This document shows, in pieces, positions 7,965 to 43,790 of a stretch of 50,887 nucleotides of DNA. The notes under the pieces are model-generated. The model worked only from the letters and a program-made list of their open reading frames with translations, searched no databases and was not told the DNA's origin. How positions within the stretch are numbered: the first letter of the stretch is position 1; each line of letters starts with the position of its first letter. Made by a program: the position numbers and the translations under genes. This DNA comes from an uncultured Oscillospiraceae bacterium (GTDB lineage: Bacteria; Bacillota; Clostridia; Oscillospirales; Oscillospiraceae). The stretch lies in assembly GCA_944385535.1 (NCBI GenBank), contig CALWXR010000014.1, positions 1 through 50,887 of the forward strand, given 5' to 3'.

Positions 7965-7993
7965 AATAAATATCACCTGCTTTTTTGAGAAGG

Positions 7994-8046: not shown

Positions 8047-8086
8047 ACTGTTGTTTATTTACCTAGCTGTTAATATCCCATCCTGT

Positions 8087-22233: not shown

Positions 22234-22265
22234 ATTGATGTCTCCTTTCCTGTGTGATTTGTAAT

Positions 22266-22292
22266 GAAAAACCCCGCCTGTTCTCAGACGGG
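22266..22292 (-). terminator. Intrinsic terminator-like hairpin in the leader of the giant gene
   Basis: CCCGTCTG/CAGGCGGG stem with AGAA loop, followed on minus by TTTTT. It ends 33 nt before the TTG start at 22233, so it may attenuate entry into the giant gene. Confidence 0.75.
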
Positions 22293-22344
22293 ATTTATAA
22301 CATGTTAGGACAATTCCAAATGATATGTGAGAAAATACGCCCCA

Positions 22345-22380
22345 GGCATTGCTGCCCAGAGCGTATCCGTTAGAACATAT
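22345..22380 (-). terminator. Terminator of the toxin-antitoxin operon
   Basis: ATACGCTCTGGGCA pairs with TGCCTGGGGCGTAT across a CA-rich loop, followed on minus by TTTTC. It overlaps the last codons of the toxin gene. Confidence 0.65.
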
Positions 22381-26393: not shown

Positions 26394-26759
26394 TTAAATG
26401 CGGAGATTCCAATACTGAACGCGCTTCCTTTCGGCATCCCGACGCCTGCGCTCCTGAACGGAACACGCAGGACAATATTTCGCACGGTGAGATTTGGACA
26501 GGACAGGCTTTCCGCAGATTACGCAGCGTTTCCTTGGCTGGGAATGGAGGATGGATGCTTCCAGCGCCGGGTCATTGGGCAGCACCGCATTGCGGAACCA
26601 CTTGCAGTTCAGCGAGTAGGAAATCCACTGTGGGCAGACATTGCAGAACGACCAGTCCAGAACAAGACAGTTTCCATTGTCATAATTGCAGCAGCGGCTG
26701 CGTATCAGCTTCCGCGCCTGCTTTAGCTGCTCGTCATTCATCCGGGGCAGATCAGCCAT
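26394..26759 (-). CDS. Cysteine-rich zinc-binding protein (Cys-rich VLP-like)
   Basis: 121 aa with Cys pairs in RCCNYDNGNCLVLDW, FCNVCPQW, CVICGKPVL and YCPACSVQE, suggesting two zinc sites. The ending KRVQYWNLRI is basic. It resembles the 'cysteine-rich VLP' family found after topB in these elements. ATG 26759 overlaps the topB stop by 8 bp. Confidence 0.75.
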   Translation of the reverse strand: MADLPRMNDEQLKQARKLIRSRCCNYDNGNCLVLDWSFCNVCPQWISYSLNCKWFRNAVLPNDPALEASILHSQPRKRCVICGKPVLSKSHRAKYCPACSVQERRRRDAERKRVQYWNLRI

Positions 26760-28791
26760 TGCCAAACACCAGCTTGAAATGCGCCCGCTCACCATCGTCC
26801 TCCAGAACCACGGCGGCGTCATAGACATTCCCGGTTTTGGAGGAAACACAGCCCTTCAGCGGTGCACGGCCTTTCTCCAGCAGGAGTTGGGCAGTTTTTT
26901 TATCGAGCGTTTTCTGCTTGAGGGTAAAGAACCGACTGTCCCTCCACAAGACGAATTTGCAATCCTTGTTCGTGCAGAAGTATCCCTTGCTGCGCTCGAT
27001 CACCGGCCTGCCGCACCGGGGGCATTTGCCCACGGTGGTTTCGGCGGAGGGGAATAGAATATCCGCGCCGGAAACCGGGCAGTAATCCGCAACCAGATCG
27101 GTGAGCATACCCTGGATGCCAGCCAGAAATTCCTCCGGCTCCAGCTCGCCCTTTTGCACCTGGGACAGCCGATGCTCCCACTCTGCCGTGAGCAGCGGCG
27201 ATTGAAGCTGTTCTGGCAAAACCGTAATCAGGGAATTACCCAGAGCTGTGGGAACCAGAATGGTCTGCTGTTTCACCTTGCGGCGTTCCAGCATTCCCGT
27301 GGATACCAACTTTTCCAGAATCCCGGCGCGGGTGGCAGGGGTTCCAAGCCCTTTGCGCTCCGCATCCTCCGGCATATCCTTTGCCCCTGCCGTTTCCATG
27401 GAGGATAGCAGAAGATCTTCCGTAAAGTGCTTGGGCGGCTGGGTTTTGCCATCCTTCACAGATATCTTGCTGGGGGTCAGCACCTGCCCGACTTCCAGAC
27501 CGGAAAACCACTTCTGCGGGATGCTTTTCTGTCCGTATTTCTTCCAGCCAGCATCCAGCAGCATTTTCATGGTTGTCTTAAAGGTTCCCTCACAGGCAAT
27601 GGTGATTTCTGCCTCCCGATAGCGGTAGGCTCCGCTGACCGCCATCAGCACCTGCCGGGAGATCAGCTTCAGAATATTCTGTTCCGCTTTCGGAAGGACG
27701 GACAAGTTCTGCTTTCCCGCTTCCGTTGTGGGAAGAATGGCGTGGTGGTCAGACACCTTTTTGGAATTGCACACCTGCTCCGCAAGAATCTCGGTGGGGG
27801 CATCCGCACCGTAGGTACCGGCTGCGCACTGGACGATGGCCGGAACGCTGCCCAGCATATCGTCCGTCAGACAGCGGCTGTCCGTCCTGGGGTATGTACA
27901 CAGCTTCTTTTCATACAGGGCTTGCAGATAGTCCAGTGTCTGCTGGGCGGTATACCCCAAAAGCCGGTTGGCATCCCGCTGGAGGGTGGTCAGGTCGTAG
28001 AGTGCAGGGGCTTTTTCCTCTTTGCCCCAATGCCGGATGCTGGCAACAACTGCCTGTTTCTTCTGGCTCAGTGCGGCCTGAAATGCCGCGTCCTCCTTGT
28101 CGGGAAACTTCTCACTGACAGCGGTGAACTCCGGAAATTCCAGCTCCACGGTGTAATAGGCTTCCGGGACAAAGGAGGCAATTTCCGATTCCCGCTGTAC
28201 CAGCAGGGACAGCGTGGGAGACATGACCCTGCCTACATTCAGCTTTGTGCCGTACAGGAGAGAAAAATAGCGGGTGGCGTTAATGCCCACCAGCCAGTCG
28301 GCTTCCGCGCGGCAGAGGGCGCTTTTGTGCAGTCCATCAAAATCGGAACCGGGACGGAGGTTGTCAAAGCCCTCCCGGATAGTATCATCCTCCATTGAGG
28401 AAATCCACAGCCGTTTCATGGGCTTGCTGCATCCTGCCAGATGGTACACCGTGCGGAAGATCAGCTCACCCTCCCGTCCGGCGTCGCAGGCGTTGATAAT
28501 GCCGGTCACATCCTCCCGGCGCATCAGCTTTCGCAGAATGTCGAACTGATTCCGCTTATCCTCTGCAATGAGAAATCGGAAGGAGCTGGGAATAATTGGT
28601 AAATCCTCCTTTTTCCATTTGGCGTAGCGGCTATCGTAGTATTCGGCATCGGCAAGGCCAGCCAGATGTCCAAAGCACCAGGATACCAGGAAACCGTTTC
28701 CCTCCAGGTATCCATCCCGGCGCATTGTGGCACCCAGAACCTTGGACAAGCTCTGGGCAACGGAGGGCTTCTCCGCAATCACAAGCTGCAT
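26752..28791 (-). CDS. topB: DNA topoisomerase III
   Basis: 679 aa type IA topoisomerase that relaxes or decatenates single-stranded regions of DNA during transfer or ICE replication. TOPRIM motifs EKPSVAQ (residues ~7-13) and DAGREGE (~104-110); catalytic Tyr in YPRTDSR (~300); GTPATRAGIL near 440; a C-terminal zinc ribbon CPRCGRPVI...CTNKDCKF (~589-612). Full length for ICE-encoded TopB. It overlaps the upstream Cys-rich gene by 13 bp, so expression is coupled. A chromosomal copy presumably exists elsewhere. Confidence 0.95.
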   Translation of the reverse strand: MQLVIAEKPSVAQSLSKVLGATMRRDGYLEGNGFLVSWCFGHLAGLADAEYYDSRYAKWKKEDLPIIPSSFRFLIAEDKRNQFDILRKLMRREDVTGIINACDAGREGELIFRTVYHLAGCSKPMKRLWISSMEDDTIREGFDNLRPGSDFDGLHKSALCRAEADWLVGINATRYFSLLYGTKLNVGRVMSPTLSLLVQRESEIASFVPEAYYTVELEFPEFTAVSEKFPDKEDAAFQAALSQKKQAVVASIRHWGKEEKAPALYDLTTLQRDANRLLGYTAQQTLDYLQALYEKKLCTYPRTDSRCLTDDMLGSVPAIVQCAAGTYGADAPTEILAEQVCNSKKVSDHHAILPTTEAGKQNLSVLPKAEQNILKLISRQVLMAVSGAYRYREAEITIACEGTFKTTMKMLLDAGWKKYGQKSIPQKWFSGLEVGQVLTPSKISVKDGKTQPPKHFTEDLLLSSMETAGAKDMPEDAERKGLGTPATRAGILEKLVSTGMLERRKVKQQTILVPTALGNSLITVLPEQLQSPLLTAEWEHRLSQVQKGELEPEEFLAGIQGMLTDLVADYCPVSGADILFPSAETTVGKCPRCGRPVIERSKGYFCTNKDCKFVLWRDSRFFTLKQKTLDKKTAQLLLEKGRAPLKGCVSSKTGNVYDAAVVLEDDGERAHFKLVFGNG

Positions 28792-28985
28792 CCTAACACC
28801 TCCAGGGAAGCGCCTCTTTGCACCTCACGGTGGCAAGGATGGACGCAGCCTTCACCGAAGCGCTTGCAGCCGAAGCAAAGATGTTCTTTGGGGAGGACAG
28901 GTTTGCTGTCCTCCCGCATGGGCTTGGGGATTTGGGTCATCATTTTCTCAAAAGACCGGGATTTCCCTTCGGTAAAATAACTCAT
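28779..28985 (-). CDS. Small Cys-containing ICE protein
   Basis: 68 aa starting [16 protein letters not shown] and containing [15 protein letters not shown], a probable metal site (CxxC...CxxxC). ATG 28985 overlaps the DUF4366 stop (ATGA), and its end overlaps topB by 13 bp. Such tight packing shows it is a real operon member. Function unknown. Confidence 0.65.
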
Positions 28986-29821
28986 TTGGATTCTGCGCCC
29001 TCCTTTTCTTCGTAGGATTCAAAATCAGCATAGTTCTCATCATCTTCGTCCATGCCGTAGTCGTAATCATCCAAATCGGTATTGCCTTTTGTTTTGGGAT
29101 CGGGCTTCTTGTTTTTCAGGAAATACCAGCCCATGACACCGATCAGGACAATGATGAGAATGACAGCAAGGACAGCGTCGGAATTGGATTTTTTCTCCGG
29201 CTCAGGGGCAGGCTCCGTCGCTGCAACAGTAGGTTCCGTAGTTGGTTCAGGCTCGCAGCCAACGCACTGGGTCATATCCTTGGCACAAATAGCGCAGGCG
29301 GTATTGACATGACCGGCATAGCATTTATCAACGCAGCTGCACACCTCCACCGTGTCTCCGTCCTCCAGCAGTGCCTGTAAATCAGCATCATCCACCTTGT
29401 TCAGGAAAAAGGTGTTGAACTGCTCGTTATTTTCGTCCACAGGCGCGTCATAGTCGATGATGATGTAGAACACCTCGCCACTGCGGGTTTCGATGGTGAT
29501 GAACTGCTTCCTCGTGTCGGCATGGTACTGGAGGTCACGGGCAATGGCGTTCCCTTCTTCAAAGGGTTCCACAGGCGTAACTGTTGTGGGCTGGGTCGGA
29601 GCCGTAGTGGCAGGCGGTTCCGTAGCAGCGGGCGCTGTGGTTGCGGGGGGTGTCGTGGGTTTTGCGGGAGCTTCGGTGGGCCTCGGCTCGGTGGGATCGG
29701 ATGTGTAGATGATGACATCATCCGCAGGCGGATCAGCTTCTGCGGATGCCGTGACAGTCAGGAAAGACAAACACAGCATCAGCGTTGCCAGAAGCGCAAA
29801 TAAACGGCGATTAAGCCTCAC
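28982..29821 (-). CDS. DUF4366 (CD1107-like) membrane-anchored surface protein
   Basis: 279 aa. Signal peptide (residues ~1-27, [18 protein letters not shown]), Pro/Thr-rich stalk (~45-85), a conserved extracellular domain ([19 protein letters not shown]) with a Cys cluster ([16 protein letters not shown]), a second short Thr/Pro/Glu linker, one membrane helix (~220-240, [19 protein letters not shown]) and an acidic cytoplasmic tail rich in Asp/Tyr. This is the standard DUF4366 protein of Tn1549-like transfer operons, thought to belong to the cell-envelope part of the channel. It overlaps DUF4315 by 11 bp. Confidence 0.88.
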
Positions 29822-31760: not shown

Positions 31761-32112
31761 ACCACTCACCGTCCAGCAGACTTTCCAGCAGCACATTCAT
31801 TTCCGAGTACACAGCGTGCCATTCCACGGAGAGTTTGGGATAGAGAAAGGTGCAGGACCAAAGGTAACATAGGCTCCCTTCCAATTCGTCCATATCGACA
31901 TACTCCGGTATCTTGGAGAACATCTCATGTTCAGCAAACAGTTCGTTAATCCGTGCCACTGCTGCTTTTCCAACTTTGGTAAGCGATACGGAACTGTTTT
32001 TCCTTATAGAACAGTAGTTTATTGCAGAAACCAAAGTGGTGATAAACTTACCGTATACTTTGGAAAAAGCAGCTAATTTGGCTTTTCCATTGACAATTTC
32101 AGCTTCTATCAT
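31753..32112 (-). CDS. Transfer-operon protein of unknown function
   Basis: 119 aa, mostly helical, with ELFAEHEMFSKIPEYVDMD and an aromatic LCYLWSCTFLYPKLSVEW segment. No signal peptide. ATG 32112 overlaps the VirB4 stop (ATGA). It sits between VirB4 and the hydrolase, so it is probably part of or regulates the channel. I do not recognise the family. Confidence 0.65.
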   Translation of the reverse strand: MIEAEIVNGKAKLAAFSKVYGKFITTLVSAINYCSIRKNSSVSLTKVGKAAVARINELFAEHEMFSKIPEYVDMDELEGSLCYLWSCTFLYPKLSVEWHAVYSEMNVLLESLLDGEWFA

Positions 32113-34907
32113 TCGGATGTTTCCTCCTTTGTTTCACTGGGTTTCGTTGTCATTAAGCGGTAGAGTTCCGTATCCTTGGGGAAGTTGTCCACGAAGGGCA
32201 CAATGGTATCGCCGTAGAACAAAAGTCCTTCACCGGCATTGGAATGGGTCACATAGGAAAGCTGGTGAGGAGAAATGCCCAGCTGCTGGGCGAGAATCTT
32301 TCGGTCACCGGCAGCCTGGTTGAGCATATAGATGAAATCCGAGTTTTCAAAGATATTCTCAACCTCCCGGCTGGCAAGCAAATCCTTGACATTCTGGGTG
32401 ATGCCCGTGGGGATGCCGCCCCATTTACGGAACCGCTTCCAGATTTCCACGGAGTAGGCGGCGGTCTGTTCCTCTTTCAGCAGCAGATGGAACTCGTCGA
32501 TGTAGTACCGGGTGGACTTTTGAGCTTCCCGGTTAATGGTGACACGGTTCCAGACCTGATCCTGAACAATCAGCATACCGATCTTCTTGAGCTGCTTGCC
32601 CAGCTCCTTGATGTCGTAGCAGACCACCCGGTTGCTGACATCCACATCGGTCTGATGGTTGAACACATTCAGAGAGCCGGTGACATAGATTTCCAGCGCG
32701 GTGGCAACGAACTGGGCTTCCTTTTCCTCCTGTTTTCTCAGACAGTCATAGAGATCACCGAGGATGGGCATCTTTTCCGGCTTGGGGTCATTGAGATAAT
32801 CCTGATACACCATTCGCACACAACGGTCAATGATGGTTTTCTCCACAGGTTTCAAGCCGTCCTTGCCGCCTACGATCAGCTCACACAGCGAAAGGATAAA
32901 GTCCGATTTCAGTGAAAGCGGATTTTCCTCGTCACTATAATTGAGGTTGATGTCCATGGGATTGATGTGGTGCTTGGAGGTGGGAGAAATCTTAATGACC
33001 TGTCCCTCCAGACGCTGCACCAGGGGGAAGTATTCGCCCTCCGGATCGCAGATCATAATGTCATCGTCGGTGGCAAGAAACACATTGGAAATTTCCCGCT
33101 TGGCGGAGAAGGACTTGCCGCTGTTGTGAACCACCAGACCGTTTTCCAGTACATAGTTCAGATACCGGGGCACGCTCATGTCATACACAGGGATGGGCTT
33201 GGAAAGAGATATGGAAGAAACCTGGGTGACGATATGCCCGCCGCTGAGGCGCATACCCTCGGCAATCTCTGCGGCTTCAATGTATTCGTCATCCCCATTC
33301 AGAATGAGATGGGTGCCCGTGCAGCGAACCTCCGTCCCATCTTCCATGACGATTTTCTTCAGCTCTCTCACATACTTTTCAAGGCGGATGTCTACGGCAT
33401 ATGCATCCACAATCTCGCCGGTGCTTTCGTCCAAAGCCTTGACCCACGTTTCTTTGACACCTTTGGCAACCAGATCGGCAAAAGAAATGGAATCTCCGTT
33501 GGCGAGAAGGACACGGGTATCACCGGAGAAGCAGCCGGGAGTGCCGAGAATCAGACCGTTGGGATTTTTCAGCAGCTTCCGATCCACCATGATGATGTTG
33601 TTACTTAGGGCGTTGATCCCGTAGTACAGCGCCTCCGGGCTGTCCTGAAACAATTCCTGGGTGGTGAAGGGAACGAAGATTGCCACACCGGAGGAAGTCA
33701 ACCCCCGCTGAATCTCAATCTGGTTGAGGCCCAGCGGCAGGCTGCTGACCATACCTTCCTCCTGCTGATAGTCCAGCGCCGTGATGCTGCAATTATATTT
33801 CTGGGCAATGGAATTGGTCTGGAACACATTGTTGTCCAGTTGGCGTTTCGTGTCCGCGGTGTTGAGAATCAGGAATGTCACAAGGAACATTCTCTGGTTC
33901 CGGCTCTGAAGGTCAGAGAGCAGCTTTTTGGCTTCGGCACCGTAGGTGGCAAGGTCAGAGGGAATTATATCCATGTCATATCCGGCACGGACAGCCTTTT
34001 TCTGTTCCTCAATCTTGCTCTTGTCCAGATCGGTGATGGTGCGCTTGATGGTTTTGATGGCGCTGACCTGATCAACGGACTGCACATGAATATTGACCAC
34101 AATGTTGCTTTCAATATCCAGAAAGTCCTTGAGAATCCGGTCACTCAGCTCCGGTGCCAGAATTTGCAGGAAACTGACAGAAGCGAACTTCTTACCCATG
34201 CGGAAATCCTTTGCCCGGTTGAACAGGAAGGAGCTGGGGGCAATGTAATCCTTGCTGGACAGGCCGGAGTGGGGCAGATCTTCCCAGCGGAAAGTAAAAG
34301 GCTCCGGCGTGTCCATGCGGAGAATGTCATGGAGAACCCGGAGCCGTTCCTGTCCGTTCAGCACCTCGGCACTGACGCCCAGCCGTTTGAAGTTGTTGAG
34401 AATGTCCGTTTCAATGCGCTCTAAGCGGGGCTTGGCAGAGCGGATGTTGTCGGCATCGATGCCGAAAGTGAGATACTTGGTTTTCACGATGCCGTTGTTG
34501 CCCTTTGCCTGCTGATCCTGGATGATTTTGGACAGTTCCCGCTGGATGCTTTCAAACTGGTCAGAGCGCAGCGGGATTGCCCGGACAAAGGATTCCCTCA
34601 GGGCGGTCAGATTCACGAAGGAAAACTGGAACTTGATGGAACTGTCGAAATAGTTGAGGAAATCACACCAGCCGTCGAAGATGGCCTGCTTGTCCTCGTT
34701 GTCCGAGAGCTGGTAGTTGATGTCCCGGAACTGAATGGTTTTGGTGAAATGAGTGGGCGTCACCTGACAGATACCGTCTACACGGATTTGCAGGTAGGGA
34801 ATGCTGTCCTGCGCGGACATTTCCTTCTTATCTGTCCGCTTTGCCCTTGAGATTGCGGTCTTGACCTCTTTTTGCTGCGTGCGGGACAGCTTTCTTTGGG
34901 TGGACAA
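32109..34907 (-). CDS. virB4: VirB4-type conjugation ATPase interrupted by an intein
   Basis: 932 aa including a 137-aa intein (residues ~459-595). The host protein is ~795 aa after splicing, with N-terminal VirB4 domain (GICQVTPTHFTKTIQFRDINYQ), a P-loop GTPG-[intein]-SGKS, Walker B YYIDEFHLLL (~805 in precursor numbering) and the C-terminal AAA motor (GIPTGITQNV). VirB4 powers pilus assembly and substrate transfer at the cytoplasmic membrane. The intein splits the Walker A loop, so unspliced protein should be inactive. The start overlaps PrgI by 80 bp. Confidence 0.93.
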   Translation of the reverse strand: MSTQRKLSRTQQKEVKTAISRAKRTDKKEMSAQDSIPYLQIRVDGICQVTPTHFTKTIQFRDINYQLSDNEDKQAIFDGWCDFLNYFDSSIKFQFSFVNLTALRESFVRAIPLRSDQFESIQRELSKIIQDQQAKGNNGIVKTKYLTFGIDADNIRSAKPRLERIETDILNNFKRLGVSAEVLNGQERLRVLHDILRMDTPEPFTFRWEDLPHSGLSSKDYIAPSSFLFNRAKDFRMGKKFASVSFLQILAPELSDRILKDFLDIESNIVVNIHVQSVDQVSAIKTIKRTITDLDKSKIEEQKKAVRAGYDMDIIPSDLATYGAEAKKLLSDLQSRNQRMFLVTFLILNTADTKRQLDNNVFQTNSIAQKYNCSITALDYQQEEGMVSSLPLGLNQIEIQRGLTSSGVAIFVPFTTQELFQDSPEALYYGINALSNNIIMVDRKLLKNPNGLILGTPGCFSGDTRVLLANGDSISFADLVAKGVKETWVKALDESTGEIVDAYAVDIRLEKYVRELKKIVMEDGTEVRCTGTHLILNGDDEYIEAAEIAEGMRLSGGHIVTQVSSISLSKPIPVYDMSVPRYLNYVLENGLVVHNSGKSFSAKREISNVFLATDDDIMICDPEGEYFPLVQRLEGQVIKISPTSKHHINPMDINLNYSDEENPLSLKSDFILSLCELIVGGKDGLKPVEKTIIDRCVRMVYQDYLNDPKPEKMPILGDLYDCLRKQEEKEAQFVATALEIYVTGSLNVFNHQTDVDVSNRVVCYDIKELGKQLKKIGMLIVQDQVWNRVTINREAQKSTRYYIDEFHLLLKEEQTAAYSVEIWKRFRKWGGIPTGITQNVKDLLASREVENIFENSDFIYMLNQAAGDRKILAQQLGISPHQLSYVTHSNAGEGLLFYGDTIVPFVDNFPKDTELYRLMTTKPSETKEETSE
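33123..33533 (-). other. Mini-intein in the VirB4 Walker A loop
   Basis: 137 codons. Block A begins with Cys1 (CFSGDTRVLLANGD); block B has the TxxH motif in RCTGTHLILNGDD; block F is PVYDMSVPRYLNYVLENG; block G ends VVHN with Ser as +1 residue. All classic splicing residues (C1, T/H of block B, penultimate H, terminal N, S+1) are present. It is too short for a LAGLIDADG homing endonuclease, and none is seen. Confidence 0.93.
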
Positions 34908-35259
34908 TCCGATAAACCTCCTTATCTAACTGGTTTTGCCGTTCAATGACGGCATAGAAATTGTTGGTTTTGTAGGGGCGCTTCTTAGGACGAAGCACCA
35001 GCACCCGAATCATGTTTCGGATGATGACCTCCAGGTGCTGCCCATTCTTTTCGTACAGAGCGAACAGGAAGGCGGGCAGCATAGTGAGGATCATCAGCAT
35101 TGCGGCAGAGGAATTGCCCAAAGGCTCCTTTGTGGCGAAATACAGGGGGACGCCAATAAGCAGGCCAATACTGAAACATATCAGCTGCCGTTTGGTCAGG
35201 TTGAAAAGAACCTTGCTTTTGACTTTGGTGAGGTCTTTGGGGACGGTTACATAGGGCAT
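34828..35259 (-). CDS. prgI: PrgI-family (VirB3-like) transfer protein
   Basis: 143 aa. Begins MPYVTVPKDLTKVKSKVLFNLTKR, the PrgI family signature, followed by two membrane helices (~27-45 and 53-70) and a basic C-terminal tail. VirB3-like component that works with VirB4 at the membrane. The last 80 bp overlap the start of virB4; it lies 12 bp downstream of the VirB6-like gene. Confidence 0.9.
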   Translation of the reverse strand: MPYVTVPKDLTKVKSKVLFNLTKRQLICFSIGLLIGVPLYFATKEPLGNSSAAMLMILTMLPAFLFALYEKNGQHLEVIIRNMIRVLVLRPKKRPYKTNNFYAVIERQNQLDKEVYRIVHPKKAVPHAAKRGQDRNLKGKADR

Positions 35260-35271
35260 TTTCTTACCTCC

Positions 35272-36141
35272 TTAGTGGGCATTGAATACGGAGCGGGCAA
35301 GGCTGCTGGTTTTGAACAGGCAGAAGCAGAGCAGAACCGTATAGCCCATACACGTCCAGATAGCTTTGCTGATGTCACCGGACACGGAGATGTTCTGCAC
35401 CAGCACGGAGTAGATCGCCACGCAGACGATAATGAGAAACGCCTGAAAGCCCAGGGCAAACAGAGTGCGCAGATAGTTCTGGCCCATCTGCCCCCATTCC
35501 CGGTTTGCCATGGTGGCCATGGGGATGGGAGCCACAGAAGTCACCAGATAGACCTCGATCATGCGCCCGTAGATGACGATGAAAATGCAGATGGTGATGG
35601 CCCAGGTGCAGATACCCACGAATAGGGACTGAAACCACAGTCCCAGCAGCGGCCCCACATCCATTTCCATGAGCCTGCTTTCCAAATCCGTGACCACCGA
35701 GGAAATGTCGATGCTGGTGTTTCCGATCATCACTCCGGCAGCACCGTTGACAACGCTCTGGGCAGCATCGAAGATGCCCATGACGATGGTCCAGGTGTTG
35801 GATACGATCAGGACTGCGGCGGCGGACTTGAATACCCATTTGAAAAACATCCAGGTGTCCACATCGTTGAGATTGTTTCTGTCGGTGATGAGCTGGATCA
35901 GCTCCAGGGTCATGACGATTGCCAGAATCGCTCCGGCGAGGGGGAGAATCACATTATTGGAAAGGTTCTGAATCATGTTGAAGATGCCGCTGTTCCACGC
36001 CTGTGGGGTCAGTCCCACCTGACCGGCGATTTCTCCAATCTGTTCATTAGTGGAATCGAACATACCGGAAAGGTTGCTGATAATCCCGCTGACAAGCACT
36101 TCTTTCAGCCAGTCCGTGATGCTATCCCAGATAAATTCCAT
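35272..36141 (-). CDS. VirB6/TrbL-like polytopic transfer protein
   Basis: 289 aa with about six membrane helices. N-terminal amphipathic segment (WDSITDWLKEVLVSGIISNL), then hydrophobic segments such as VILPLAGAILAIVMTLELIQ and the conserved VTSVAPIPMATMANREWGQMG loop. It matches the CD0411-like inner-membrane channel proteins of clostridial ICEs, equivalent to VirB6. Ribosome-binding site GGAGGTAAC before ATG 36141. Confidence 0.88.
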   Translation of the reverse strand: MEFIWDSITDWLKEVLVSGIISNLSGMFDSTNEQIGEIAGQVGLTPQAWNSGIFNMIQNLSNNVILPLAGAILAIVMTLELIQLITDRNNLNDVDTWMFFKWVFKSAAAVLIVSNTWTIVMGIFDAAQSVVNGAAGVMIGNTSIDISSVVTDLESRLMEMDVGPLLGLWFQSLFVGICTWAITICIFIVIYGRMIEVYLVTSVAPIPMATMANREWGQMGQNYLRTLFALGFQAFLIIVCVAIYSVLVQNISVSGDISKAIWTCMGYTVLLCFCLFKTSSLARSVFNAH

Positions 36142-36159: not shown

Positions 36160-36936
36160 TTAGGTTGTCGGAACTACGGAGGTTTCCACACGTTCACAGT
36201 AGACCACATACCGCTGCCTGCCGCCGGAGGCGTAGGGGTGACAGGTCAGCAGCGTCAGCAGCTCCCGTCCTGGCTGAATCAGAATTTCCTCTACATCGTG
36301 GGGGTCGATGATCTTGATTTCACAGACCCGGTAGGTCAGCGTCTCCCACAGGTTTGTGATGGAAACCAGATCCCCCACTTTCAGCTTGTCGATGTAGCGA
36401 AAGTAGCTGGCACCGTTGTAGCCCCGGTGTCCGGCAATGACGCAGTTGGTGTTATCCCCGCCAATGGGCAGGCTGGTCTGGCTCAGATGGGCGGCACCGG
36501 CTGCCATGTGCTGTTCCGTTGCACCGAGAAAGATCGGCATTTCCAGCTCCATAGCGGGAATGGAAATCACGCCGAATACTTCATCGGCAAGACCGTACTG
36601 TGTCAGGGAAAAGCTGGGCTTCTGGTAGTCGTACTGGCAGGACAGCCCTGCCTGCCCCTGGGTGAAGATGGTTTCGTTGTAGCGAACCATGTCTGCCCAC
36701 AGCTCCGGGTAGGCTCTTACATTTTCCGGGGCAGTCGGCTCGGTGGAATCGATGGTGACAATAACTTCGGCAGTCGGTGCTGTTTTTCCCCGGTCCAGAA
36801 AGCCCTGTGCATTCAGGGAGATCTCCCGGTCAACCATGGCACCCCAAAGATAGGGATACAGGAGAAAGGCAAGACCGGTAGCGAACACCAGCAGCATCAG
36901 GGCAATCAGAAAGGCACGGAATTTACCGTTTCGCAT
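36160..36936 (-). CDS. Pilus-type sortase (class C-like), first copy
   Basis: 258 aa. N-terminal membrane anchor (FLIALMLLVFATGLAFLLYPYL), sortase fold with catalytic His in AGHRGYNG (~170), Cys in LLTLLTCHP (~231) and Arg in GRQRYVVYCER (~243). Transpeptidase that links or anchors LPXTG-type proteins outside the membrane. No C-terminal membrane segment, unlike the second sortase, so it may be the housekeeping/anchoring partner. ATG 36936 follows AGGAGG; the gene overlaps the neighbouring sortase by 14 bp. Confidence 0.85.
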   Translation of the reverse strand: MRNGKFRAFLIALMLLVFATGLAFLLYPYLWGAMVDREISLNAQGFLDRGKTAPTAEVIVTIDSTEPTAPENVRAYPELWADMVRYNETIFTQGQAGLSCQYDYQKPSFSLTQYGLADEVFGVISIPAMELEMPIFLGATEQHMAAGAAHLSQTSLPIGGDNTNCVIAGHRGYNGASYFRYIDKLKVGDLVSITNLWETLTYRVCEIKIIDPHDVEEILIQPGRELLTLLTCHPYASGGRQRYVVYCERVETSVVPTT

Positions 36937-37816
36937 AGCAGCCTCCTTTCTTCCTTTTTCTGAACTTCTTCCAGCATTGTACCGAAAGGGCAACCACCAG
37001 TATTGCACCAGCGGCGGCAAGAATCCCAATGAGGATGCCCTGCAGGTATTTTGCTTCCCATGTGGACACTTCCGGGTCCACACTCTGGATTTCTTCTGTC
37101 AGGGCAGCAGCTTCCTCAAAGGGAATCCGGGAACCGCGAACCAGCAATCTGTGGGTATTTACACCGTAGGGGGTGCAGGTGACGAGGGTGCACAAGTCCT
37201 CGCCGGGGACAATCCCCAGCAGTCTGGTGTCGTAGGGCAGCACAGTGTTGATCTCCACCACCTGATACGCCAGAGTTTCGTTCAGAATGTGCATGTAAAA
37301 CACATCCCCAACAATCAACTGCTCCAGATCGGTGAACATCTTCTGGGATGCCATGCCGCTGTGACCGGACAAAATGGAATGAGTGCTTTCTCCACCGACT
37401 GGGAGAGAGCTGCCCAGCAGATGCCCAATGCCGCGTTCCAGGGAATCGTTTTCTGTGCCGTGGTAAATGGGCAGGTTGACGCTGATCTTGGGAATCTCCA
37501 CATAGCCCATGATGCCATTCCCGGCGAGATTGAGCTGGCTGTCATAGTCTGCCGATGCTGCCAGCAAGCCCTCCTGACTGTAAGTGTCCTCCGTAGAAGC
37601 GCCGGGAATCAGGGAATGATTGTAAATATCCGCCCGGTCTTTTGCTTCCCGCAGCGCAGAATCATCTATTTGCTCTATGACCTCCTGATAGGCGGTGTGA
37701 ATCTGAGATGCGTACTTTTGGTTTACATAATTACTGATAACGGGATAAAGGGTCAGCCCCAGGGCCAGCAGGAACGCCATGACTGCCAGGGCGATTGTGA
37801 TACGCTTTTGCTTCGT
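36923..37816 (-). CDS. Class C pilus sortase, second copy, with apparent ACG start
   Basis: 297 aa if read from ACG 37816, 285 from the internal ATG 37780. It has an N-terminal membrane helix, YVEIPKISVNLPIYHGT, catalytic His in LSGHSGM, Cys in TLVTCTPYGVNTHR and Arg in LLVRGSR, and a C-terminal membrane helix with a Lys/Arg tail; this is class C architecture, which polymerises pilins. AAAGGAGGG stands 6 nt before ACG-AAG-CAA-AAG (expected MKQKR); no ATG, GTG or TTG is nearby. A start-codon mutation, or ACG initiation, would lower expression. Confidence 0.85.
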   Translation of the reverse strand, partial: TKQKRITIALAVMAFLLALGLTLYPVISNYVNQKYASQIHTAYQEVIEQIDDSALREAKDRADIYNHSLIPGASTEDTYSQEGLLAASADYDSQLNLAGNGIMGYVEIPKISVNLPIYHGTENDSLERGIGHLLGSSLPVGGESTHSILSGHSGMASQKMFTDLEQLIVGDVFYMHILNETLAYQVVEINTVLPYDTRLLGIVPGEDLCTLVTCTPYGVNTHRLLVRGSRIPFEEAAALTEEIQSVDPEVSTWEAKYLQGILIGILAAAGAILVVALSVQCWKKFRKRKKGGCYAKR

Positions 37817-37839
37817 ATGGAACCCTCCTTTAGGGGAAA

Positions 37840-37866
37840 GCCCCGGAGGGGGTGTCCCTCCGGGGC
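37840..37866 (-). terminator. Hairpin between major pilin and sortase genes
   Basis: GCCCCGGAGGG pairs with CCCTCCGGGGC, followed on minus by TTTCCCC. It is GC-rich with a short T-run; likely a partial terminator or RNA stabiliser that keeps pilin mRNA above sortase mRNA. Confidence 0.7.
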
Positions 37867-37877
37867 GGCGGTGAGAA

Positions 37878-39986
37878 TCAGACGGAACGCTTCTTGCGGC
37901 TTACCAGAACAATGGCAGAGGCAGCGCCAGCCATGAGCAGGATGCCGATGACGGTGAAAACAAAAGTGCCGTTGTCACCGGTCTTGGGCAGATCAAAGCC
38001 ACGGGTGTTCACCACGGTCAGGGGCGCTTCAGCATTGACGCTGCCGTTATCCTCCACCATATTGACCTTCTTGCCATCCACGGTAGCGGAAGCGGTCAGC
38101 AGCTTATGCTCCAGATGCGCCTGGGGCATATTGTGCAGGTCGCCGGAGTCCTTGATGATGCTGGCATACCGGGGATCATTCTGGATCAGGCCCAGCACAT
38201 CGGAATCATAGATGTCGCACAGGCCAGTGGTCTCAGTCTGGGAAATAACCACATCGATGCCCTGCTTCAGCATCACATAGCCGCTGTCAGTGCGAACCTC
38301 GGTTATGGTATAGGTATCATCCTCCAGGCCCTTGACAATAATCTTGCCCTTGGAATCAGCTGCCTTGACGGGGATAAAGTGGGTGGCGTCCGCTTCCGCA
38401 GTCACATGGTCAACCACATAGTAAATGCCTTCGTCCTCGTTCAGCTCTGCCTTGACAAAGTAGTTGTCGGTTTTGTTCTGAATCAGGAACTCCACCTTGG
38501 AGAAATCACCATTGCCGTCGCTGAACAGCTTGGTCAGGTCAATGCCGTAGGTAAACACATGGCAATCGTCAACCAGGGTATCGTAGTAGTCCTGAGAAGT
38601 GCGCTTCCAGGTCAGAACCACATCGTTGGGGTTTCCAGCGTCGCCGTAAACAACGGAGCTGTCGCTGTTCATGGTCGCCTGATAGGTGATTCTCACGGTG
38701 CAGTCGGAGAAGCCGGAGTTGACCATGGATGCGCCGGAGTAAACAGCCTTGGAGGTGTTGATTTCAGTCAGACCGTTAGCAGTCATTTCGATGGTCATAA
38801 CGGACTCCCCGGCATCGGTGGTATTGTAGGCAACGGTGAACTTACCGTCAGCCTCCGTCCACTTGGCAACGGAATCGGTGCAGGCAGCGTCGGTGAAGAA
38901 CTCCAGAACCACATCGCCCTTGTTGTAGGTCAGGCCCTTGGACAGGGTATCCACGAAGGTGTAGCAGGACAGATAGGTGGATTCGGAGGTGATGGAGGGC
39001 AGCGTGGAAATGATCTGATAGTCGATGACATCACCATCGGAGGCAGTGCCGGTGTGGGCGTAACCGTCGGTAATATCAGCAGCGGAGCCGCCGTTCTTGC
39101 CAGTGTCAGCCACCTGCTCCCGCAGGGTCTTTTCCAGAGAGGGAATGCCGGTCAGGTTTTTGGGGTACAGGGTAATGTCGTAGATCCAGCGGGTGCCGCC
39201 GTCAGTGGCGTTGGTGCCGTCAACAGAGGTCATGGGGACGGATACCAGGAAGGGATCGGTGGTGGACACGACCATTTCGGGAACTTTGGTCTCCACAACC
39301 AGGTACAGGCCCAGAGCCAGATCGGTGGCCTGGGTCTTACCGTAGGAATCGGTCAGGGGCATGGCAGTGCCGCCGTTAGCAGCGCTGTAGGCTTCCAGAG
39401 CGTTCTTAGCCACGGTGGAGTTGGCTTCCAGGCGAGCGGCCAGGGCATCGATCAGCACATCGGACTGGTAGAAATACTTGGAGGAATCCAACTGGTCAGC
39501 GTTGGTATAGCGGTTCAGACCATTTTCCAGCCCCAGGGCTTTCAGAAAGTCAGCACCCTTGGTCTTGTCGATGGCGTACAGCACTTCCACATGGCTGCCG
39601 GTACGGTTATCCGCTTCGGATTCGGAGAACTGGACGATATCCGCGACCTTGACGTAGGTGAACTCCACGCCCTTGATGGCATAGCCGTAGGACACTTCAC
39701 CATTGCCCAGGTCGGACTGGGTATCGGTGTCTCCCGCCCGGACTGCACCGCCCAGGATATCGTTCACGCCGGTCTGATCAAACACGCCGGTGGAGACGTA
39801 GGAGGAATCCCAAACACCGTCCTTTTCGGCGTTCGTCAGGTCATACTTGTAGATGGTCAGGGAGCCGGTCTTGGATTCGTCGATGGTGGCATCGCCCACC
39901 TCTGCCGCGAAGGCAGCGGGAACGCAGCTCAGGCAGAGCATGAGGGCCAGACACAGAGTGATGATTCTCTTAAAAGTTGTTTTCAT
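37878..39986 (-). CDS. LPXTG major pilin (SpaA/SpaH-type)
   Basis: 702 aa. Signal peptide (~1-28, LALMLCLSCVPAAFA), N-terminal domain, pilin motif YPKN (~275-280, the Lys that forms intersubunit bonds), Ig-like isopeptide domains with E-box TYTITEVRTDSGYVML near 600, and sorting signal LPKTGDNG with a membrane helix and RKKR tail. Sortase class C would polymerise it through the Lys and the Thr of LPKTG. It is preceded by AAAGGATAAT. Its position in a transfer operon implies that the pilus works in mating or host adhesion. Confidence 0.92.
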   Translation of the reverse strand: MKTTFKRIITLCLALMLCLSCVPAAFAAEVGDATIDESKTGSLTIYKYDLTNAEKDGVWDSSYVSTGVFDQTGVNDILGGAVRAGDTDTQSDLGNGEVSYGYAIKGVEFTYVKVADIVQFSESEADNRTGSHVEVLYAIDKTKGADFLKALGLENGLNRYTNADQLDSSKYFYQSDVLIDALAARLEANSTVAKNALEAYSAANGGTAMPLTDSYGKTQATDLALGLYLVVETKVPEMVVSTTDPFLVSVPMTSVDGTNATDGGTRWIYDITLYPKNLTGIPSLEKTLREQVADTGKNGGSAADITDGYAHTGTASDGDVIDYQIISTLPSITSESTYLSCYTFVDTLSKGLTYNKGDVVLEFFTDAACTDSVAKWTEADGKFTVAYNTTDAGESVMTIEMTANGLTEINTSKAVYSGASMVNSGFSDCTVRITYQATMNSDSSVVYGDAGNPNDVVLTWKRTSQDYYDTLVDDCHVFTYGIDLTKLFSDGNGDFSKVEFLIQNKTDNYFVKAELNEDEGIYYVVDHVTAEADATHFIPVKAADSKGKIIVKGLEDDTYTITEVRTDSGYVMLKQGIDVVISQTETTGLCDIYDSDVLGLIQNDPRYASIIKDSGDLHNMPQAHLEHKLLTASATVDGKKVNMVEDNGSVNAEAPLTVVNTRGFDLPKTGDNGTFVFTVIGILLMAGAASAIVLVSRKKRSV

Positions 39987-40076
39987 GAAGCATTATCCTT
40001 TCTTAAATAAAATGTTTTTTGATTTTGTTGTTTGGTTGGTATGTTGATGGGGAAAAAGGTTTGTATCGGTGGCATG

Positions 40077-40100
40077 AAAAAGCCAGGGCTGATCCCTGGC
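40077..40100 (-). terminator. Intrinsic terminator after the thioester adhesin gene
   Basis: GCCAGGG/CCCTGGC stem, followed on minus by TTTTT. It is 22 bp after the adhesin stop and ~90 bp before the major pilin ATG, so the two pilus genes can be set at different levels. Confidence 0.85.
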
Positions 40101-40121
40101 ATGGTAGAAGGTGTCCATGGA

Positions 40122-43100
40122 TTACACCTTCTTTCTCCGATATACGATGATACCCAGACAGCCAACAGCAGCCAGCAGGCTGAGAACTTTAAGAATCAAG
40201 CCCGAACTTGCTCCCGTTTCCGGCATAGTGAAGGTACGGGCGTTAATCACACGCACTGCGATCTCCAAGTCATCAACAGGAAGCTCTCCTTCAAAAGCGG
40301 TGTTGGTGAGCAGCTTGAAGCCGTCCGGTGCTTTGGTTTCCGTCAGGCGGTACTGTAAGCCAGGATAGAGGCTGCCCCATTCCAGAATACCGTCCATTCC
40401 GGTAGTCAGGCACCCTTCCACAACATCGGGATTGGAGCAGCCGCCCCGCACGACAACTTCAGAATCGGAATAGGTTACGGGATACCACAGGGAACCCTCC
40501 GCACTCCATTCCAGCAGGAAAGTGGCCCCTTCCAGGGGGCTTCCGGTGGTGTCTACCTTCTCAACGGTGATCTTACCGGGACGCAGGGTGTTGGTGAAGA
40601 AAACCTCTGCGGTCTTGCCCTGGGCAACTGTAATTCTCTGGGGATTCTCACTTTTGCAGTAGAACAGGCTGTTCTCCGGGAACAGTTCTTCGATGGTGTA
40701 CTCACCGGGGAGAATGTTTTCCGTCAGGATGGTGCCGTCTGCCTGGGAAGTCAAGGGAGAACCCTTAATTTCTGTCCCATTGGCATCCGTGATCTTGAAC
40801 TGCCAGCCCGCAACGCTGCCGTCACCCTCTACGGTTTTGATGATTTTCAGCCTGCCGTACTGGATATTGGTGAAGGTAATGGAAACATCCTCATGGGGCT
40901 TGATCTCGAATTCCTGAATGGTTTCATCCACCATCCAGTATTCATCCTCAAAGCGGCCATACTCGTCTCCGGTTTCCTTGGCCCAGTAGGTGCCGGGGTC
41001 AAGATAGTACCCCGCCTTGCCTTCCTCGTTGGTGATAAGCGTTCCGATCTCCTGGGTGCAGCCTTCATCCGCATAGATAGTAATGTGCCAGCCCTCCACG
41101 GATTCTCCGGTGTTGGTTTTCTTGTAGAACCAGCCCAGGCCCTGTTCCTTGTTCAGCCAGGTGTCCACGGAGGTTTTTCCTGCGATGACGGTTACATCAT
41201 GGAAGCCCAGTTCCGTACACCAGTAATTATCCTCTGTAGGCAGCTCAACGATAAGATAGCGTCCCGGAGCCAGTTTCCCGGTGCAGGCATAGCCGTTTTC
41301 GTCTGTGGTGTAGTCCCCCACAACATTGCCGTCGGAGTCCTTTACCCGGAATGTCCAGCCTTCCAGATGATTGCCCGTATTGGTGGTTTTCTGGAACTCG
41401 ATACGTCCATACTGCGTATTGGTATAGGACACTTCTGCTTGTGAACCGGCTGTGATCGTTACCTGCTTTTCTACGGTGGCATCGTACTCCCAATAGGTGT
41501 CATCCCGGTCATGAACTTCCCGCACATAGTAATTTCCCGGCAGCAGCTTCCCCGAATAGGCATAGCCGTCCGCTCCGGTTTTGACAGTGGACAGGATGTT
41601 TTTATTGGCATCCAGAATCTGGAAGCTCCATCCCTCCGCGGAACCGTTCACGGCGTTCTTTTGAATGCGCAGATCGCCATAATGGGTATTGGAGAAGGTC
41701 ACAGTTGCCGTAGCATTGGCCGTAACTGTCACCGTTTTCACAGCGGAATCGCAGACCCAGTAGGGATCGCTGATGGCTGCTTCCTTTGCGTAATAAGTTC
41801 CGATGGTCAATCCTGTAACAGTCACGCTGCCGTCTGCCCCGGTGGTAAAGGGAGAACCGGTGACAGCACTGGTGCAGGCAGCATCATAGTAAAGCCCAAT
41901 CTGCCAACCACTCAGGTTCTGACCTGTGTTTGTGGTCTTGACCAGCTTCACGCTGCCGGTGTTCAGCTTGTTTGTGAAGCTGACCGTTGCTGTGGCACCT
42001 GCGGTCACAGTCACCGACTGCGGGTTGATGCTGGCACAGTAGTACAGGGCATTGATGGTGCTGTCCGTGTGTCCCAGCTCCTTCACATAGTAAGTGCCGG
42101 GGGTAAGTCCCGTAACGGAAATCTTTCCGCTGCTGTCCGTAGTGTGCGGCCCGGATACCAGACTGGTACAGGAAGAATCAGAGTAAATTCCAAAGCGCCA
42201 GCCGGACAGATTTTTGCCGTCCTCGGTTGTTTTCGTCAGGCTGATGGAACCCGTATTCAGTTTGTTGTAGAAACTGACCGAAGCGGTGCCGCCGCTGGTG
42301 ACGGTCACCATTTGGGGATTGGTACTGGTGCAGGTATACAGGGCGTTGATACTGCTGTCCGTATGCCCCAACTCCTTAACATAGTAGGTTCCGGCAGTCA
42401 GCCCTGTAACGGAAATCTTACCGCTGGTATTTGTGGTGTGCGGGCCAGACACCAGAGTGGTGCAGGCACTGTTGCTGTAAATCCCAAATTGCCAGCCGGA
42501 TAGGTTTTGCCCGTCCTCTGTGGTTTTCGTCAGACTGATAGCACCCGGATCGGGAGCTTTCAGCTTAAAGTAGGCATTGATATTGCCGCTGGAAGCACTG
42601 TACAGGCTGATGCAGGTCTGATAAGTAGAACCGGACATATACCAAATATTGTAGGTAGAGCTGGCGGCAGAGGGAGCATACCGGGTTGCCGTAAAGACGG
42701 TGGATGCCGAAATGGTTCCGGTCTGGGTGATTGTCAGGGTGTTCCCGCTCTTGCTGAAGCTGGCCCCGCTTCCATTGGAGAAACTGAAATTGGACAGCAC
42801 GCCGTTGGAATCCGTTACAGAGGTAGACGTACCGCTTAGAGTGATCGTCGGCGCACTGCTGCTGGAAGAACTCGTGAAGCTGGGAATCTTCTTTGCAGCC
42901 TGGATGTTGGACACCAAGGTGTTGTAATTGGGCGCAAAGTTGGAAACGGAAGCTACACCCGCATTGTAGAAGATGTCACCAGCCGTTCCGCACTCGTTGG
43001 TGGAGTTAAGCGTAAATGTGCTGGGATCACGCAATCCACAGACAATCTCGTAGATCAGGAACTGTGTTGCCACACGGAGCGGAACGTTGGGATTGTTGGC

Positions 43101-43790
43101 CTTGGAGGTGGTGGTCACGCTGATGGAGTGATCCCACATCTGGTTACTGTACAGCAGGATCAGGCCAATGGCTTCCCGTCTCGCAGCGGGCAGCGCATAC
43201 CAGACATTGGAGCCTTGGGTGCTGCCACTGCCATCCAGAGTCACGCCCCGGTCTACGGAGTTGCCGGAGGTGCTGGCAGCGTAGGTGCGCCAAGGCTCGA
43301 TGCAATAGATGGGGTCATCCGCATAGGCCACTCCGCCGTACCGGGCAAAATGCCAGCCCATGTTCTTGATGTACGCCGTTCGGGTCGTATCAGTACCGTT
43401 GGGTTTGTAAGTACAGGACACCTGATAGTTTAATACCGTGGTGTAGTTGCCATTGTCCGCATAATCGAACAGCATGATGCTGTTCTGGGTGCTGGCGATG
43501 CTCATAACGGCGTAATCATCGGAAGCGAATGCCATGATTTCCGGCTCGTCTGCCAAGGCTCCCTCTTCCAAACCTTCGGTGGATTCTGTCTCAGACTCCG
43601 TTGAAGGGGACGTTGTTTCTTCTGCCTGGGTTTCTTCGTCAGGAGTGGTTGCTTCCTCGGCTTGTGTCGATTCTGGTTCCGTACTGGCTCCCGGTGTATC
43701 CGCTTCTGCGGCTGACACACCGGGAATTAGCCCAAAGCACAGAACCAACACCAGCAGGAGAGAAATCATCCTCCGTAAGTGTTTCATCAT
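40122..43790 (-). CDS. Thioester-domain tip adhesin with SpaA/Cna-B repeats and MPETG anchor
   Basis: 1222 aa. Signal peptide (~1-27); Thr/Glu-rich low-complexity segment (~35-85); thioester domain (~110-300) with Cys in DPIYCIEPWR and Gln in ATQFLIYEIV, the residues that form the covalent bond in known TED adhesins; eight prealbumin-like repeats (~410-1170), repeats 1 and 2 being 98 aa each and nearly alike (ISLTKTTEDG, LSGWxFGIYS, GTYYVKELGH); the last repeat has the E-box YRLTETKAPDGF; sorting signal MPETG, membrane helix, RRKK tail. Likely the pilus tip or a covalent host/recipient-cell adhesin. RBS AAAGGAG. Confidence 0.9.
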   Translation of the reverse strand: MMKHLRRMISLLLVLVLCFGLIPGVSAAEADTPGASTEPESTQAEEATTPDEETQAEETTSPSTESETESTEGLEEGALADEPEIMAFASDDYAVMSIASTQNSIMLFDYADNGNYTTVLNYQVSCTYKPNGTDTTRTAYIKNMGWHFARYGGVAYADDPIYCIEPWRTYAASTSGNSVDRGVTLDGSGSTQGSNVWYALPAARREAIGLILLYSNQMWDHSISVTTTSKANNPNVPLRVATQFLIYEIVCGLRDPSTFTLNSTNECGTAGDIFYNAGVASVSNFAPNYNTLVSNIQAAKKIPSFTSSSSSSAPTITLSGTSTSVTDSNGVLSNFSFSNGSGASFSKSGNTLTITQTGTISASTVFTATRYAPSAASSTYNIWYMSGSTYQTCISLYSASSGNINAYFKLKAPDPGAISLTKTTEDGQNLSGWQFGIYSNSACTTLVSGPHTTNTSGKISVTGLTAGTYYVKELGHTDSSINALYTCTSTNPQMVTVTSGGTASVSFYNKLNTGSISLTKTTEDGKNLSGWRFGIYSDSSCTSLVSGPHTTDSSGKISVTGLTPGTYYVKELGHTDSTINALYYCASINPQSVTVTAGATATVSFTNKLNTGSVKLVKTTNTGQNLSGWQIGLYYDAACTSAVTGSPFTTGADGSVTVTGLTIGTYYAKEAAISDPYWVCDSAVKTVTVTANATATVTFSNTHYGDLRIQKNAVNGSAEGWSFQILDANKNILSTVKTGADGYAYSGKLLPGNYYVREVHDRDDTYWEYDATVEKQVTITAGSQAEVSYTNTQYGRIEFQKTTNTGNHLEGWTFRVKDSDGNVVGDYTTDENGYACTGKLAPGRYLIVELPTEDNYWCTELGFHDVTVIAGKTSVDTWLNKEQGLGWFYKKTNTGESVEGWHITIYADEGCTQEIGTLITNEEGKAGYYLDPGTYWAKETGDEYGRFEDEYWMVDETIQEFEIKPHEDVSITFTNIQYGRLKIIKTVEGDGSVAGWQFKITDANGTEIKGSPLTSQADGTILTENILPGEYTIEELFPENSLFYCKSENPQRITVAQGKTAEVFFTNTLRPGKITVEKVDTTGSPLEGATFLLEWSAEGSLWYPVTYSDSEVVVRGGCSNPDVVEGCLTTGMDGILEWGSLYPGLQYRLTETKAPDGFKLLTNTAFEGELPVDDLEIAVRVINARTFTMPETGASSGLILKVLSLLAAVGCLGIIVYRRKKV
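41955..42548 (-). repeat. Two 294-bp tandem coding repeats in the adhesin gene
   Basis: Repeat 1 (about 42548-42255) and repeat 2 (about 42254-41961) each code 98 residues and share most positions at DNA and protein level. Repeat 3 downstream is clearly related but diverged. Copy number could vary by recombination. Confidence 0.7.

What the first reader, a model, noticed from the sequence alone, without database searches (positions are those of the whole stretch)
33123..33533. Mini-intein inserted in the Walker A loop of the ICE's VirB4 ATPase
The sequence shows GTPG, then a 137-codon block with all intein splicing residues (Cys1, TxxH, HN end, Ser+1), then SGKS. Inteins often sit in ATPase P-loops (established), but one in a VirB4 of a Tn1549-type ICE is unusual to me. 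Splicing would be required for conjugation, so it could act as a post-translational switch or as a selfish passenger that travels with the ICE. The lack of a homing endonuclease suggests it is now fixed and inherited vertically with the element.
Basis: partly seen in the sequence, partly recalled or inferred. Interest (0 to 1): 0.87.

Follow-up and report, generated by a model that had tools for sequence, protein, structure and literature searches.

The report
Self-splicing insert in a conjugation motor
The motor protein that drives DNA transfer by a gut-bacterial mobile element carries, in its ATP-binding loop, a small insert that very probably cuts itself out after translation; this insert comes and goes among related elements even though it carries no known means of spreading.

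Summary
Confirmed. Window 33123-33533 (minus strand) encodes exactly 137 residues with the class-1 intein splicing residues, between GTPG and SGKS of a CD1110-family VirB4 in a Tn1549/CD1110-type ICE. Intein N- and C-terminal models pass their cut-offs; the predicted fold (pLDDT 97.7) matches solved mini-inteins. Mini-inteins of 136-137 aa sit at the same bond in 15 of 20 GTDB-species loci returned (one truncated) and 2 of 21 IMG/VR loci. Splicing residues are invariant in 14 of 14 alleles and intein dN/dS is 0.03-0.29, so splicing is very probably active, though not observed.

'Fixed and vertically inherited' fails at family scale: intein-bearing VirB4s are not a clade (p-AU 2e-8, 5e-36), close relatives are empty, and the own genome holds an empty copy. 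In 200 same-family genomes 3 of 78 VirB4s reaching the site are interrupted. Best reading: active ICE-borne mini-intein, spread by conjugation plus recombination. Regulation is untested. Nine open-access searches showed me no natural VirB4 intein. New host gene for a known kind.

The parts
33123..33533 (-). mini-intein, 137 aa (Cys1 to Asn137)
   Evidence: sequence; TIGR01445/TIGR01443 above cut-off; PF14890 on the block alone; model pLDDT 97.7; Foldseek to solved mini-inteins
32109..34907 (-). virB4 precursor gene, CD1110 family, 932 aa with intein (start codon uncertain; overlaps the PrgI gene)
   Evidence: NF045971 equivalog 1096.6 bits, cut-off 325
33534..34907 (-). N-extein, ending GTPG (first half of Walker A)
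   Evidence: profile 1-425
32112..33122 (-). C-extein, beginning SGKS (second half of Walker A); Ser+1 codon AGC 33122-33120
   Evidence: profile 426-752
33531..33533 (-). Cys1, first splicing nucleophile
   Evidence: Cys in 14 of 14 alleles
33309..33320 (-). block B TxxH (Thr72-Gly-Thr-His75)
   Evidence: Thr72 and His75 in 14 of 14 alleles
33180..33182 (-). block F Asp118 (in VYDM)
   Evidence: Asp in 14 of 14 alleles
33123..33128 (-). His136-Asn137, C-terminal splice dipeptide
   Evidence: 14 of 14 alleles
34828..35259 (-). PrgI-family gene just upstream of virB4
   Evidence: PF12666 E 5e-30
35272..36141 (-). TrbL/VirB6-like membrane protein
   Evidence: weak TrbL_P match, 20.0 bits, below cut-off 128.85; an ORF of the same length lies at the same place in L020, L026, L027, L028
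30075..31796 (-). CD1108-family / NlpC-P60 hydrolase downstream
   Evidence: NF045974
44169..45953 (-). VirD4-like coupling protein, CD1115 family
   Evidence: NF045973
9690..11099 (-). relaxase (MobA/VirD2-like)
   Evidence: PF03432

Best explanation
The block is an active class-1-type mini-intein. VirB4 is made as a precursor whose Walker A loop is split (GTPG...SGKS). The intein folds as a Hint domain, Cys1 attacks its own upstream peptide bond (N-S shift), the N-extein moves to Ser+1, Asn137 cyclises, and the exteins are joined to GTPGSGKS, giving a VirB4 that can bind ATP. The unspliced protein should be unable to power transfer. The intein has no endonuclease; it persists because a lesion that stops splicing would disable the ICE's own transfer motor. 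It spreads by riding the ICE between hosts, and enters or leaves virB4 lineages by homologous recombination with other CD1110-type ICEs in the same cell. Shown here: sequence, residues, predicted fold, purifying selection, same site in many ICEs, patchy occupancy, empty relatives, co-resident empty copy. Inferred: splicing itself, ATPase block before splicing, recombination as the route.
For: Splicing residues present and invariant in 14 of 14 aligned alleles; intein HMMs over cut-off; 14 of 14 members match intein_Nterm and 13 of 14 intein_Cterm at E up to 0.001; model pLDDT 97.7, Foldseek top three NpuDnaB, Mtu RecA and Ssp DnaB mini-inteins, query TM 0.78-0.86. dN/dS of the intein 0.03-0.20 in six close pairs and 0.14-0.29 in four distant pairs. 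Precise empty sites in relatives. ICE-borne spread: L023, L024, L025, L033 (NCBI Oscillospiraceae and Lachnospiraceae), 94.3-97.5% DNA identity to L023 over 7.2 kb. Patchy: one clade of intein-bearing exteins rejected, p-AU 2.2e-8 (N-extein) and 5.4e-36 (C-extein). Own genome: intein-bearing copy on C14, intact GTPGSGKS copy on C1.
Against: No splicing was observed. Residue 125, where many inteins have a His before the Asn (recalled), is Met, Leu, Gly or Tyr in 14 of 14 alleles. The intein has diverged much faster than its exteins (window vs L020: 80% against 99% aa identity over the parts compared), so constraint is looser than on VirB4. Recombination as the route is inferred: signs of co-conversion beside the site were weak. 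The intein tree has low support (2 of 11 branches starred), so intein-extein conflict could not be tested well. The AU tests used LG+G4 with rows left out, after I had seen earlier trees.
Confidence: 0.83

Rival explanations
1. Conditional splicing switch: the intein splices slowly or only under a signal (redox, temperature, contact with DNA or partner), so conjugation is gated after translation.
For: P-loop mini-inteins are published examples of conditional splicing (RadA, PMC5790916, passages; mycobacterial DnaBi1 redox sensor, PMC6195587, passages). The best solved match by sequence profile is the P. horikoshii RadA intein. Cys71 next to block B is present in 13 of 14 alleles and could pair with Cys1.
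Against: A Cys before TxxH is common in inteins (recalled). Nothing here shows slow or signal-dependent splicing. Close relatives do without the intein, so the gate is dispensable to the ICE family. Purifying selection is equally expected for plain splicing.
Confidence: 0.17
2. Recent homing with an endonuclease that we do not see: full-length alleles with an endonuclease exist in unsampled ICEs, or a free-standing endonuclease acts in trans on the empty site.
For: Patchy occupancy at one exact bond. The +1 Ser codon is AGY in 17 of 17 intein rows but in 36 of 78 empty rows, as if a DNA site mattered.
Against: All full-length copies found are 136-137 aa. Over the 4.2 kb of L064 that aligns to it, intein-bearing L026 has, besides the intein, one extra 1.65-kb stretch, which holds an IS110-like transposase ORF (by eye) and not an endonuclease gene. 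The LGTPG-Cys pattern found only the two known contigs in IMG/VR. The AGY bias may be shared descent: the empty relatives L064, L103, L107 are AGY too.
Confidence: 0.15
3. Dead insert: the intein no longer splices and this VirB4 and ICE are decaying.
For: One relative is clearly broken: L032/L005 (P. phocaeensis An858) starts inside the intein.
Against: Window ORF is open over 932 codons, catalytic residues intact, intein dN/dS 0.20 with L020 and exteins 0.02, and typical ICE genes lie around it.
Confidence: 0.04

Closest known systems
P-loop mini-inteins of archaeal RadA and CDC21/MCM (P. horikoshii, P. abyssi) and mycobacterial DnaBi1
   Same: Endonuclease-less intein in the ATP-binding loop of a nucleic-acid motor (PMC5790916, PMC6801210, PMC6195587, passages); RadA intein is the best PDB sequence match to the VirB4 intein profile (E 3e-13, over profile positions 25-137); Hint fold.
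   Different: Host is a conjugation (type IV secretion) ATPase on an ICE, in Clostridia. Insertion bond is GTPG|SGKS; the 'classic' P-loop site is between the invariant Lys and Thr (PMC5050341, passage). DnaBi1 uses the class 3 mechanism, this one has class-1 residues. Identity to the 50 Foldseek matches listed is 13-29%.
Intein-bearing phage terminases (e.g. MW202478)
   Same: Mobile-element ATPase host; distant homology (28.9% identity, E 8e-5).
   Different: In MW202478 the intein sits late in the protein, not in the P-loop.
Intein-free VirB4 of CD1110-family ICEs (Tn1549-like)
   Same: Same gene family and neighbours; uninterrupted loop.
   Different: No intein; 4 of 78 empty rows carry GTPGAGKS, which lacks the +1 nucleophile.

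Membership tests
Intein (self-splicing Hint protein) | N-terminal Cys/Ser/Ala, block B TxxH, C-terminal (H)N, +1 Cys/Ser/Thr | tested here: met
   Cys1, T72xxH75, H136-N137, Ser+1; Cys1, T72, H75, D118, H136, N137 in 14 of 14; Ser+1 in 17 of 17 intein rows
Intein (self-splicing Hint protein) | Hint (hedgehog-intein) fold | tested here: met
   AlphaFold pLDDT 97.7; Foldseek to solved inteins, best E 2.6e-9
Intein (self-splicing Hint protein) | In-frame insertion at an exact point absent from homologues | tested here: met
   NF045971 broken at 425/426; empty homologues
Intein (self-splicing Hint protein) | Autocatalytic excision and extein ligation | not testable with these tools
   needs expression
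Homing (endonuclease-bearing) intein | LAGLIDADG or HNH endonuclease domain | tested here: not met
   136-137 aa in all full-length copies found; no endonuclease family matched by the window protein
Conditional-splicing intein | Splicing depends on a signal | not testable with these tools
   no biochemical data
CD1110-family VirB4 | NF045971 equivalog cut-off 325 bits | tested here: met
   1096.6 bits, in two stretches either side of the intein
Tn1549/CD1110-type ICE | Linked relaxase, VirD4 (CD1115), CD1107, CD1108, PrgI, VirB4 | tested here: met
Tn1549/CD1110-type ICE | Own integrase and defined att ends | tested here: inconclusive
   three tyrosine recombinases at 2589-5824, but ends were not mapped and these may be a separate element

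The most novel reading that the evidence does not exclude
An intein gates conjugation itself: VirB4 of a widespread gut ICE family is held inactive until its P-loop intein splices, and the endonuclease-free intein is passed among co-resident ICEs by recombination, a 'passenger on a passenger' that tunes horizontal gene transfer.
Probability: 0.15. Interest if true: 0.78.

Novelty: new member of a known kind. Interest (0 to 1): 0.46.

Why it matters
It adds a conjugation motor to the list of P-loop intein hosts, and gives natural matched pairs (intein-bearing and empty VirB4, even within one genome) in which to ask whether an endonuclease-less intein helps, harms or merely rides. Because this ICE family crosses family borders, it is a concrete vector for intein dispersal; PMC5050341 (passage) calls the vectors of intein transfer speculative and names phages and conjugation as candidates.

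Tried and rejected
Rejected: 'ordinary VirB4 insertion' (empty homologues); 'Hint-domain toxin or hedgehog-like processing domain' (insertion mid-ATPase with both exteins conserved; the Hint hits L013-L015, L018, L019 and L149-L157 are other proteins by eye); 'endonuclease gene beside virB4' (the extra 1.65 kb upstream in L026 holds an IS110-like transposase ORF by eye, no family search run); 'another divergent intein' in long frames of G934 (L097), G963 (L159) and G031 (L160) (all uninterrupted).

Led nowhere: intein alone in viral contigs (0 of 16 stretches confirmed); intein in plasmids (no match among 72,556 records at E 1e-3); the 2 phage records matched have other host proteins; the phylum-wide profile search gave no new VirB4 intein (9 of 319 genomes, only the own genome and G066 in VirB4; the other 7 read). 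Co-conversion beside the site in L026 was suggestive at most (94% to L022 against 91% to L064 in the first 90 bases on the N side).

Rows dropped: the trees left out 10 loci that duplicate a genomic place (L003-L005, L007, L008, L016, L017, L090, L108, L110); also, because my loop motif did not fit them, six fetched VirB4 loci, L081, L082, L084, L085, L087, L088 (found; all uninterrupted by the profile); L031 was too short for the C tree, L032 and L115 had no or too little N part. further left out L089, L119, L034, L079, L080, L083, L086, L078, L041, L111-L114, L116, L031, L107 as long branches or near copies. L034 (intein) and L107 (empty, grouped with L029/L030) are among these; with them 7 changes were counted, without them 5. 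Of the 5 other loci, 4 were read (not L037). Of the 19 other loci, 5 were read; the other 14 were not inspected.

Full report
What is there. The minus-strand ORF 32109-34907 encodes a CD1110-family VirB4 (NF045971, 1096.6 bits). Its Walker A loop reads GTPG, then 137 residues, then SGKS. The inserted block has Cys1, TGTH (72-75), Asp118 in a VYDM block F, His136-Asn137 and Ser+1. NCBIfam intein_Nterm and intein_Cterm score above their cut-offs. Pfam Intein_splicing passes its cut-off for the block alone and falls just short for the whole protein; Pfam Hint stays below its cut-off. The VirB4 profile itself is split exactly at positions 425/426.

Fold. An alignment of 14 such inteins (A3) gives an AlphaFold model with mean pLDDT 97.7. 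Foldseek ranks NpuDnaB, Mtu RecA, Ssp DnaB and NpuDnaE inteins first. By sequence profile the best solved relative is the P. horikoshii RadA intein, another P-loop mini-intein (E 3e-13).

Neighbourhood. The gene lies in an ICE gene set: relaxase 9690-11099, DNA topoisomerase III-like 26752-28791, CD1107 28982-29821, CD1108/NlpC-P60 30075-31796, VirB4, PrgI 34828-35259, TrbL-like 35272-36141, two sortases, a pilin and a large SpaA-repeat surface protein 36160-43790, VirD4 (CD1115) 44169-45953, ParB-like 49689-50576. None of the 27 distinct window proteins given to Pfam or NCBIfam (the intein block not counted apart) matched a drug-resistance family at the E-value limits used; not every ORF was searched.

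Occurrence elsewhere. With the intein alone, 4 of 300 same-family genomes matched, the window's own and the truncated G039 included. With a four-row profile, 5 of 394 genomes of the order matched, 3 of them in VirB4, and 6 of 391 of the class, 4 of them in VirB4. The samples overlap. The scan of 84,980 GTDB species with profile A2 returned 20 loci; 15 (L020-L034) are VirB4 with the intein at the same bond, one of them (L032) truncated inside the intein; the other 5 matched weakly and the 4 I read are other proteins. This scan needs exact matches to short motifs, so it is a lower bound. IMG/VR gave 21 loci, 2 of them VirB4. The pattern for the same loop followed by Cys found only those two contigs, against 27 with the loop uninterrupted. 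No plasmid record matches the intein, while 88 hold the C-extein at E up to 1e-60. Record titles name Pseudoflavonifractor, Oscillibacter, Intestinimonas, Gemmiger, Catenibacillus, Parablautia, Lachnoclostridium, Faecalicatena and unnamed Clostridia and Oscillospiraceae, some with a cecum, colon or rectum source; that the others are gut bacteria is recalled. No full-length copy found exceeds 137 residues.

Occupancy. In 200 genomes of the window's family, 78 above-cut-off VirB4s reach the site: 75 run through it uninterrupted, and 3 are interrupted at it (own C14, G066 C6, and the truncated G039) (recount). At most five candidates per genome appear to have been scored, so copies may be missed. 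The own genome has a second full VirB4 on contig C1 with intact GTPGSGKS, and a partial one on C47; G066 likewise has an uninterrupted copy on its contig C1.

Evolution. Trees were built from the two exteins separately. On the C-extein (68 rows, 17 with intein) and N-extein (67 rows, 17 with intein) quick trees the intein label needs 7 changes. On careful LG+G4 trees with long branches and near copies removed it needs 5, of which supported branches force 4 (N) or 5 (C), and holding the intein-bearing rows together is rejected: p-AU 2.2e-8 for N (14 against 37 rows) and 5.4e-36 for C (15 against 38). L026 (intein) groups with empty L061 and L064; its ICE matches L064 at 88-90% DNA identity on both sides of the exact insertion. 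The counts cannot tell gain from loss. L023, L024, L025 and L033, from NCBI Oscillospiraceae and Lachnospiraceae, whose titles name strains and not MAGs and whose contigs are 80-447 kb, share 7.2 kb at 94-97.5% identity (each against L023) with the intein inside: the intein is carried between families by the ICE.

Selection. Nei-Gojobori dN/dS of the intein is 0.20 (window-L020), 0.17 (L021-L022) and 0.03-0.09 (four pairs of L023, L024, L025, L033), and 0.14-0.29 in four distant pairs, some with saturated dS; exteins in the same close pairs give 0.00-0.08. The intein is therefore under purifying selection but less tightly than VirB4. Synonymous divergence of intein and exteins is of the same order in window-L020 (0.61 against 0.36 and 0.45), consistent with joint inheritance inside that lineage.

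Site. All 17 intein rows have an AGY codon at Ser+1; of 78 empty rows 36 have AGY, 38 TCN and 4 an Ala codon. The rows are related, the 17 fall into about nine sequence groups, and the empty relatives L064, L103 and L107 are AGY too, so this may be descent rather than a DNA target.

Literature. In nine full-text searches of an open-access library I saw no listed title or abstract start that describes a natural intein in VirB4 or an ICE; most listed papers were seen in the listing alone. Of the 5 papers holding both 'intein' and 'VirB4' I read passages of two (PMC8628067, PMC13222520), which touch on inteins only in connection with an engineered toxin; the other three were seen in the listing. 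I read passages, not whole texts, of PMC8987985, PMC5050341, PMC10663303, PMC7765530, PMC6801210, PMC5790916, PMC6195587 and PMC4465626. The 2016 survey of intein clustering by Novikova and colleagues is not held, so priority is not established. About 70% of bacterial and archaeal inteins lie in ATP-binding proteins (PMC5050341, passage), so a P-loop location is ordinary for an intein; the host is what is new to me.

Judgement. A genuine, very probably active mini-intein of a known kind in a host gene for which I found no earlier report, on a mobile element, with clear evidence of repeated gain or loss. The regulatory-switch idea is attractive and open.

Noticed in passing
window 2589-5824 (-): Three overlapping tyrosine recombinase genes in tandem, the layout I recall for 'recombinase in trio' elements; could be a separate small element beside the ICE.
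   Followed up: no
window 36160-43790 (-): Two sortase genes, an LPXTG SpaH/EbpB-type pilin and a 1222-aa protein with SpaA repeats and a borderline thioester-domain match lie inside the conjugation gene cluster, between the TrbL-like gene and VirD4.
   Followed up: no
window 13168-22431 (-): Single ORF of 3087 aa inside the ICE; not annotated here.
   Followed up: no
window 6906-8770 (-): A class I (Trp/Tyr-type) tRNA synthetase-like gene and a DUF554 gene between the recombinases and the relaxase.
   Followed up: no
L005 / L032 (P. phocaeensis An858): virB4 remnant that begins inside the intein at about residue 37-41, next to an ORF on the other strand that looks like sulfate adenylyltransferase (by eye): a breakpoint inside the intein.
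   Followed up: partly
L072, L091, L102, L119: Empty VirB4 alleles with GTPGAGKS, which lack the +1 nucleophile and so could not host a splicing class-1 intein at this bond.
   Followed up: partly
L149, L150, L156, L157: Hint domains inside large proteins, two copies with the same amino acids 5.7 kb apart in each of two genomes.
   Followed up: no
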